Source of the DNA: Synechocystis sp. PCC 6714
GTDB taxonomy: Bacteria > Cyanobacteriota > Cyanobacteriia > Cyanobacteriales > Microcystaceae
Reading direction: 5' to 3'
DNA: 64,000 bases
Assembly (NCBI RefSeq): GCF_000478825.2
Contig: NZ_CP007542.1
Location: 372,001-436,000 of the forward strand
Shown here: piece after piece, positions 15,019 through 15,906 of the stretch
Layout of the letters: the number at the start of each line of letters is the position of its first letter
How positions within the stretch are numbered: position 1 is the first letter of the stretch
Position numbers and translations under genes: made by a program
Notes under the pieces: generated by a model
Databases searched by the model: none
Told to the model about the DNA's origin: nothing
Seen by the model: only the letters and a program-made list of their open reading frames with translations

Positions 15019-15131
15019 TCAAAAATACCCAGTCCTGCCCTGGCAAGGGATAAGCTATTGACTCCCCCAGAAAAATACCCGCAACTTAGTGGTGATTTAG
15101 TGGCGATCGCCATCTCGTCGAAAAGCAATAC

Positions 15132-15479
15132 TTAATCAGCGAAAATCCAAGTGGATAGATTCTTTGTAACTTTCTCCAATCTGTCGGGGGAAATTTCGCC
15201 TACTTTGCCAAGTAATATACTTTTTGAGACCACAGCTAAGCGAGAAACTCTGATAACACTTTCTGACTTTAAACCTGTTTGTTTAAAATCAGGATCATTG
15301 GGAGTAATAATTTCATCCAGACTAGGTATTTATTGACCCGTTTTAGTGGAGATCATGCAAACAAGCCAATCATCATAGCCATTGCATACAAATTTGATCA
15401 AAAGAGCAAGACGCAACTTTCCCACAACAAGATCCGTTTGGGGAAACTTAAACAATACTATTTGCCCTGCTATTGCCAT
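15132..15479 (-). pseudogene. MazF/PemK-family toxin with one premature stop
   Basis: Reading from ATG 15479 gives a 115-codon frame interrupted only once, by TAA at 15330-15332 (codon 50). The first half carries GQIVLFKFPQTDL and YDDWLVCMIS and the second half DEIITPNDPDF, SVIRVSRLAVV and LGKVGEISPDRL. These correspond along their length to the MazF/PemK-type toxins common in cyanobacteria, which cut RNA. Both halves are in the same frame and nothing else seems lost. The start overlaps the end of the antitoxin frame by 10 bases. It is probably a recently inactivated gene; readthrough or a sequencing error cannot be excluded. Confidence 0.7.
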
Positions 15480-15673
15480 TTCTCAATCAGATCAGCTTCG
15501 GTGTATTTAGGTAAATCATCATTTTCCAGGTTTCTCATAGATTGTTCCAGGGAAAATTGATTCTACTGTTCATTCGCTTCTAGTTCTTGCGTAATGAGTG
15601 AAGCTAGTACTTCTTGTTGTTCTGAGGATAAATTCTTGATTTTTGCAATCACCCCTTCAAGTAGTTCTGTCAT
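15470..15673 (-). pseudogene. Antitoxin partner of the MazF-type toxin, one premature stop
   Basis: From ATG 15673 the frame has 67 codons and one internal TAG at 15563-15565 (codon 37). The N-terminal half (MTELLEGVIAKIKNLSSEQQ) resembles small cyanobacterial antitoxins that begin with an LPxxxQ-type helix. The second half ends with PKYTEADLIEKWQ, an acidic tail like those that bind the toxin. The true stop overlaps the toxin start, as in functional operons. The 36-residue fragment before the TAG could still be made but would lack the toxin-binding tail. Confidence 0.6.
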
Positions 15674-15906
15674 AATAAAAAGCCTCAAGCTATTGTTGAT
15701 GTAACCATTTTAATGTATTTAATATGGTTTTATTTCTCAATAAACTAGGTGAATAATTTCGTAGATTACCATGCTTTTTATTATAGGGGCATTGCTTATT
15801 TGAAATTTCACTTAAAAATTGTCAAATCTCTGGGCAACTAGGAAAATGATTCAGTCCCCCTTACAATGGATGAGCAGTTTTGCCCATATCCCTAAAGCTA
15901 GTCTGA
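15674..15906. other. AT-rich intergenic region between TA remnant and clpB
   Basis: This divergent region should contain the promoters of clpB and of the decayed toxin-antitoxin pair. No CIRCE element (TTAGCACTC-N9-GAGTGCTAA) is visible, so HrcA control of this clpB is not indicated. I see no gene. Confidence 0.5.

What the first reader, a model, noticed from the sequence alone, without database searches (positions are those of the whole stretch)
15132..15673. Decayed toxin-antitoxin pair with one stop in each gene
On the minus strand an antitoxin frame and a MazF/PemK-type toxin frame overlap by 10 bases as in functional operons. Each has exactly one premature stop (TAG at 15563, TAA at 15330), with otherwise continuous frames. 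Joint inactivation is notable: losing the antitoxin first would be lethal, so the toxin stop probably came first. The module falls below usual ORF size cut-offs.
Basis: partly seen in the sequence, partly recalled or inferred. Interest (0 to 1): 0.6.

Follow-up and report, generated by a model that had tools for sequence, protein, structure and literature searches.

The report
Dead PemK/MazF toxin-antitoxin gene pair
A bacterial toxin gene and its antidote gene, sitting together between two housekeeping genes of a cyanobacterium, have each been broken by one stop codon; intact relatives exist in other cyanobacteria, so this is an ordinary, fairly recent case of a toxin-antitoxin pair decaying.

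Summary
On the minus strand an antitoxin-like frame (15673-15470) and a PemK/MazF-type toxin frame (15479-15132) overlap by 10 bp. Each has exactly one internal stop (TAG 15565-15563, TAA 15332-15330) and no frameshift. It is not chance: the toxin frame matches Pfam PemK_toxin (E 1.3e-10), and intact pairs 71-77% identical with the same overlap exist in three genomes of the same family. The antitoxin stop falls on a Trp present in every intact relative examined. The window branch has dN/dS about 0.10 (0.05-0.22), so the pair was maintained until recently. At the same clpB-pyrH gap one sibling species keeps a far more decayed copy, and another has a HicAB pair with nearly the same boundaries, so the gap is a turnover site for such modules. 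"Toxin stop first" is supported only indirectly: six relatives have a broken toxin beside an intact antitoxin, none the reverse. Best reading: a recently inactivated PemK/MazF pair with a small DUF2281-like antitoxin, a known phenomenon. Low interest.

The parts
15470..15673 (-). Antitoxin pseudogene frame (67 codons plus stop; ATG at 15673-15671)
   Evidence: homologous to intact 67-72 aa antitoxins that overlap intact toxins by the same 10 bp in G008, G009 and G034
15563..15565 (-). In-frame TAG, codon 37 of the antitoxin, at a position that is Trp in the intact relatives examined
15132..15479 (-). PemK/MazF-type toxin pseudogene frame (115 codons plus stop)
   Evidence: PF02452 E 1.3e-10; 71-77% aa identity to the closest intact relatives
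15330..15332 (-). In-frame TAA, codon 50 of the toxin
15408..15410 (-). Codon 24 of the toxin: Leu where all 15 intact relatives aligned have Pro (second probable lesion)
15470..15479 (-). 10-bp overlap of antitoxin end and toxin start, shared with cyanobacterial relatives
15025..15833 (.). Variable slot between the divergent genes clpB (15907, +) and pyrH (-); boundaries approximate, and nearly the same in sibling species G003 (decayed PemK pair) and G004 (HicAB pair)
15711..15816 (-). Stretch just upstream of the antitoxin that is homologous to the start of a 60-aa ORF next to the remnant in G003; not found in G004
   Evidence: local score 63 against a maximum of 51 in 500 shuffles

Best explanation
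The locus is a chromosomal type II toxin-antitoxin pair of the PemK/MazF (mRNA interferase fold) class, with a small DUF2281-like antitoxin, that became non-functional recently by point mutation. Shown: one nonsense codon in each frame, no frameshift, and an extra change at an invariant toxin Pro. Shown: the antitoxin fragment keeps only the N-terminal 36 residues and loses the conserved C-terminal segment. Shown: the toxin fragment keeps 49 of 115 residues and so loses more than half of the MazF-like domain. Inferred: the C-terminal segment is the toxin-binding part, as in MazE-type antitoxins, so neither product works. Inferred: the toxin was lost first (by the Pro change or the stop), after which the antitoxin was no longer needed and drifted. 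The module was probably acquired into the clpB-pyrH gap before the split from sibling species G003, where it has decayed much further and by different mutations.
For: Coordinates and stops. PemK profile. Intact pairs in G008, G009 and G034. AlphaFold model of the intact G008 relative, pLDDT 89, with MazF/EndoA/YdcE structures as its best PDB matches (TM 0.7-0.8, E about 1e-6). Invariant Trp and Pro at lesion sites. Window-branch dN/dS 0.10, 95% 0.05-0.22, meaning long constraint and recent loss. Same-slot, more decayed copy in G003 with a different stop codon at the same Trp position, a second stop, a lost toxin start and a large deletion of the toxin. HicAB with nearly the same boundaries in G004. 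Broken toxin with intact antitoxin in L040, L053, L054, L055, L056, L057; the reverse in none.
Against: The antitoxin itself reaches no curated Pfam cut-off, only distant members do. The order of the two stops cannot be read from one genome. The kinship of the window and G003 copies is unresolved by tree (AU p 0.40 both ways), so independent insertion is not excluded. No expression data. Both stops could in principle be assembly errors, and no second strain was available.
Confidence: 0.9

Rival explanations
1. Sequencing or assembly error, or a mutation fixed in one laboratory culture: the species' pair is intact and working.
For: Low dN/dS on the window branch, only two stops and no indels; no second genome of the species could be examined.
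Against: Two independent stops plus a third change at an invariant residue are hard to get from random errors in 542 bp; the genome is 99.99% complete in 4 contigs; the sibling copy at the same site is also dead.
Confidence: 0.06
2. The stops are read through or recoded, and the pair is functional and held silent.
For: The frames are otherwise continuous and were constrained until recently.
Against: No relative with an intact pair has a stop at either site; the invariant toxin Pro is also changed; G003 has lost most of the toxin.
Confidence: 0.02
3. The pair is dead, but the antitoxin stop came first; loss of translational coupling through the 10-bp overlap silenced the toxin, which then decayed.
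For: The 10-bp overlap is conserved; an early stop upstream of an overlapping start could lower toxin translation (inference).
Against: Six relatives show broken toxin with intact antitoxin and none the reverse. Chance of 6 of 6 is 0.016 at equal odds, about 0.06 if weighted by gene length, and weaker still if some of the six share one event.
Confidence: 0.2

Closest known systems
PemK/MazF family type II toxin (PF02452), e.g. B. subtilis EndoA/YdcE and M. tuberculosis MazF-mt3
   Same: Profile match of the window frame; weak sequence-profile match of the subfamily to EndoA (E 0.006); fold of an intact relative matches MazF structures
   Different: The window copy is truncated after codon 49 and has Leu at the invariant Pro
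Intact pairs in Snowella sp. ULC335bin1 (G008/L010, L039), G009 and G034
   Same: 76-77% nucleotide identity over the full pair for G008 and G009; the same 10-bp overlap and gene order in all three
   Different: Open frames; different flanking sequence (the similarity stops at the ends of the pair)
PemK-DUF2281 pairs, e.g. on a Synechococcus elongatus UTEX 3055 plasmid (NZ_CP033063.1)
   Same: PemK toxin beside a small DUF2281-type gene; antitoxins of distant members pass the DUF2281 cut-off
   Different: The window antitoxin and its closest relatives do not pass the DUF2281 cut-off
Decaying chromosomal ccdO157 of E. coli and other degenerating chromosomal modules (reviewed in PMC7167474 and PMC2654758)
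   Same: Chromosomal toxin-antitoxin pairs lost by nonsense mutations and deletions
   Different: Different families and host

Membership tests
PemK/MazF type II toxin | Profile match above curated cut-off | tested here: met
   PF02452 41.9 bits against cut-off 23.1, reading the frame with X at the stop
PemK/MazF type II toxin | MazF/CcdB-like fold | tested here: met
   Model of the intact relative L010 matches many MazF structures; the window copy itself was not modelled
PemK/MazF type II toxin | Uninterrupted coding frame | tested here: not met
   TAA at codon 50; hence a pseudogene of the family, not a working member
PemK/MazF type II toxin | mRNA cleavage and growth arrest on expression | not testable with these tools
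   needs experiment
Type II toxin-antitoxin operon | Small upstream antitoxin gene adjoining or overlapping the toxin start | tested here: met
   10-bp overlap in the window and in six cyanobacterial relatives (L010, L011, L012, L040, L056, L057)
DUF2281 antitoxin | Profile match above curated cut-off | tested here: inconclusive
   Window frame no match, G034 E 0.05 below cut-off; distant members L044, L045, L047 above cut-off
Long-dead pseudogene | Relaxed selection (dN/dS near 1) over its branch | tested here: not met
   Branch average 0.10, 95% 0.05-0.22; the stops are therefore recent relative to the branch

The most novel reading that the evidence does not exclude
The clpB-pyrH gap in this genus is a preferred landing slot where different toxin-antitoxin modules replace one another, and the antitoxin is knocked out repeatedly at the same Trp codon by independent mutations in sibling species.
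Probability: 0.2. Interest if true: 0.3.

Novelty: new member of a known kind. Interest (0 to 1): 0.17.

Why it matters
It is a clean snapshot of an early stage of toxin-antitoxin decay, with a later stage at the same locus in a sibling species and intact relatives elsewhere, so the usual order of loss (toxin before antitoxin) can be tested by comparing more isolates. It also shows that short, broken modules are missed by ORF cut-offs.

Tried and rejected
Plasmid DNA search: no match. Phage protein search: no match. PADLOC and NCBIfam: no usable match. Antisense ORFs over the pair (15151-15336 and 15279-15560, +): the matching antisense reading in relative G009 is full of stops (L011), so treated as chance. 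Promoter scan: 7 promoter-like sites against 3.0 (sd 2.0) in shuffles, not informative. Tree of window and G003 copies: unresolved. Same Trp codon hit in both species: the chance that two random nonsense mutations in this antitoxin share a codon is about 4% under a 2:1 weighting of transition paths, mildly unusual and not pressed. One Pfam query (protein 8) was mistyped and is not used; one search replaces it. The ccdO157 decay paper itself is not held, so it is cited through the two reviews.

Full report
OBSERVATION. The two minus-strand frames are present exactly as described. The antitoxin-like frame runs 15673-15470 and the toxin frame 15479-15132, overlapping by 10 bases. Each has a single internal stop: TAG 15565-15563 (codon 37) and TAA 15332-15330 (codon 50). 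No frameshift separates the toxin frame from intact relatives. Neither frame leaves a piece of 50 aa or more in the ORF list.

IDENTITY. The toxin frame, read with X at the stop, scores 41.9 bits against Pfam PemK_toxin (cut-off 23.1, E 1.3e-10). Intact homologues lie in G008 (77% aa), G009 (77%) and G034 (71%) of the same family of cyanobacteria. G008 is evidently the Snowella bin ULC335bin1, since its 18448-bp contig matches that of locus L039 in length and place. More distant relatives occur in several other phyla. For G008 and G009 the nucleotide match spans the whole pair at 76-77%. An AlphaFold model of the intact G008 toxin from 15 relatives has pLDDT 89 (the best of five models; the others were 52-69), and its best PDB matches are MazF structures. 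Sequence alone reaches B. subtilis EndoA only weakly (E 0.006). The antitoxin family is small and poorly covered: the window frame and its close relatives pass no curated cut-off, while distant members next to the same toxin subfamily pass DUF2281. A DUF2281 gene is also annotated beside a related PemK gene on a Synechococcus plasmid.

LESIONS. The antitoxin stop falls on a position that is Trp in every intact relative examined. It leaves the N-terminal half and removes the conserved segment that ends in the toxin overlap. The toxin stop leaves 49 of 115 residues. The toxin also has Leu at position 24, where all 15 intact relatives aligned have Pro, so the toxin may have been damaged before its stop arose; this is inference.

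TIMING. Between the window and intact relatives the toxin differences are concentrated in third codon positions (21, 9 and 42 at positions 1, 2 and 3 against G009). The window branch has dN 0.095, dS 0.90 and dN/dS 0.10 (bootstrap 0.05-0.22). The pair was therefore under purifying selection for nearly all of that branch and was inactivated recently. Synonymous divergence is high and the antitoxin is short, so this is an estimate for the two genes combined.

LOCUS IN SIBLING SPECIES. The module sits between the divergent genes clpB (+) and pyrH (-). In G003 (pyrH 93% identical) the same gap holds a 210-bp remnant of the same module, 73-74% identical to the window. Its antitoxin has a different stop codon at the same Trp position and a second stop, the toxin start codon is lost, and the toxin is cut off after about 20 codons. 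In G004 the gap instead holds a HicA (E 1.6e-10) and HicB-like pair. The outer boundaries are nearly the same in all three (about 15025 and 15833 in the window). G001 and G002 have other genes upstream of pyrH, with no clpB match in the stretches examined. A further stretch, 15711-15816, is shared by the window and G003 only (score 63; maximum of 500 shuffles 51), which favours one old insertion followed by separate decay. A tree of the 206-bp overlap cannot decide between shared descent and separate acquisition. Third-position divergence of the module between the two species (0.45) lies in the upper tail of neighbouring genes (median 0.31, 95th percentile 0.46).

ORDER OF LOSS. In 22 related loci examined, six have a toxin frame broken early with an intact antitoxin (L040, L053, L054, L055, L056, L057), and none has an intact toxin with a demonstrably broken antitoxin. 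L042 lacks an ATG for the full antitoxin but its frame is open; L058 has a broken toxin and an incomplete antitoxin and was not counted. The six are not all independent, the loci were found through the toxin, and longer genes are hit more often, so this is moderate support. A second PemK gene of the window's own genome (C1:1757338-1757655) also has a stop near its C-terminus beside an open antitoxin frame, the same pattern.

COMPARISON WITH THE LITERATURE. Degeneration of chromosomal toxin-antitoxin loci by nonsense mutations and deletions is established (PMC7167474, PMC2654758, both citing the ccdO157 work). In Synechocystis PCC 6803 and 6714 such loci are highly mobile between close strains, and PemK pairs with small hypothetical antitoxins are known (PMC4963859).

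VERDICT. The feature is ordinary.

Noticed in passing
G000:C1:1757338-1757655 (locus L067): A second PemK-type toxin of the same genome has an in-frame TGA at codon 95 of about 115, at a site that is open in its relatives, beside an open 71-aa antitoxin frame.
   Followed up: partly
L085 about 2020-2470 (G004, clpB-pyrH gap): A HicA/HicB-like pair occupies the same gap, with nearly the same boundaries, in a sibling species.
   Followed up: yes
L084 about 934-1116 (G003): A 60-aa ORF (MNYEVIVLACQQLNY...) of no known Pfam family lies next to the decayed module; its first bases have a counterpart in the window at 15711-15816.
   Followed up: partly
L007 1501-1603 and downstream (G009): The N-terminal half of the antitoxin family is also found in front of a different small downstream gene, which suggests modular swapping of antitoxin domains.
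   Followed up: no
L040 3001-3345; L056 and L057 3001-3100: Nostocales relatives have an intact antitoxin with a toxin broken by a stop at codon 72 (L040) or ended after 32-33 codons (L056, L057).
   Followed up: yes
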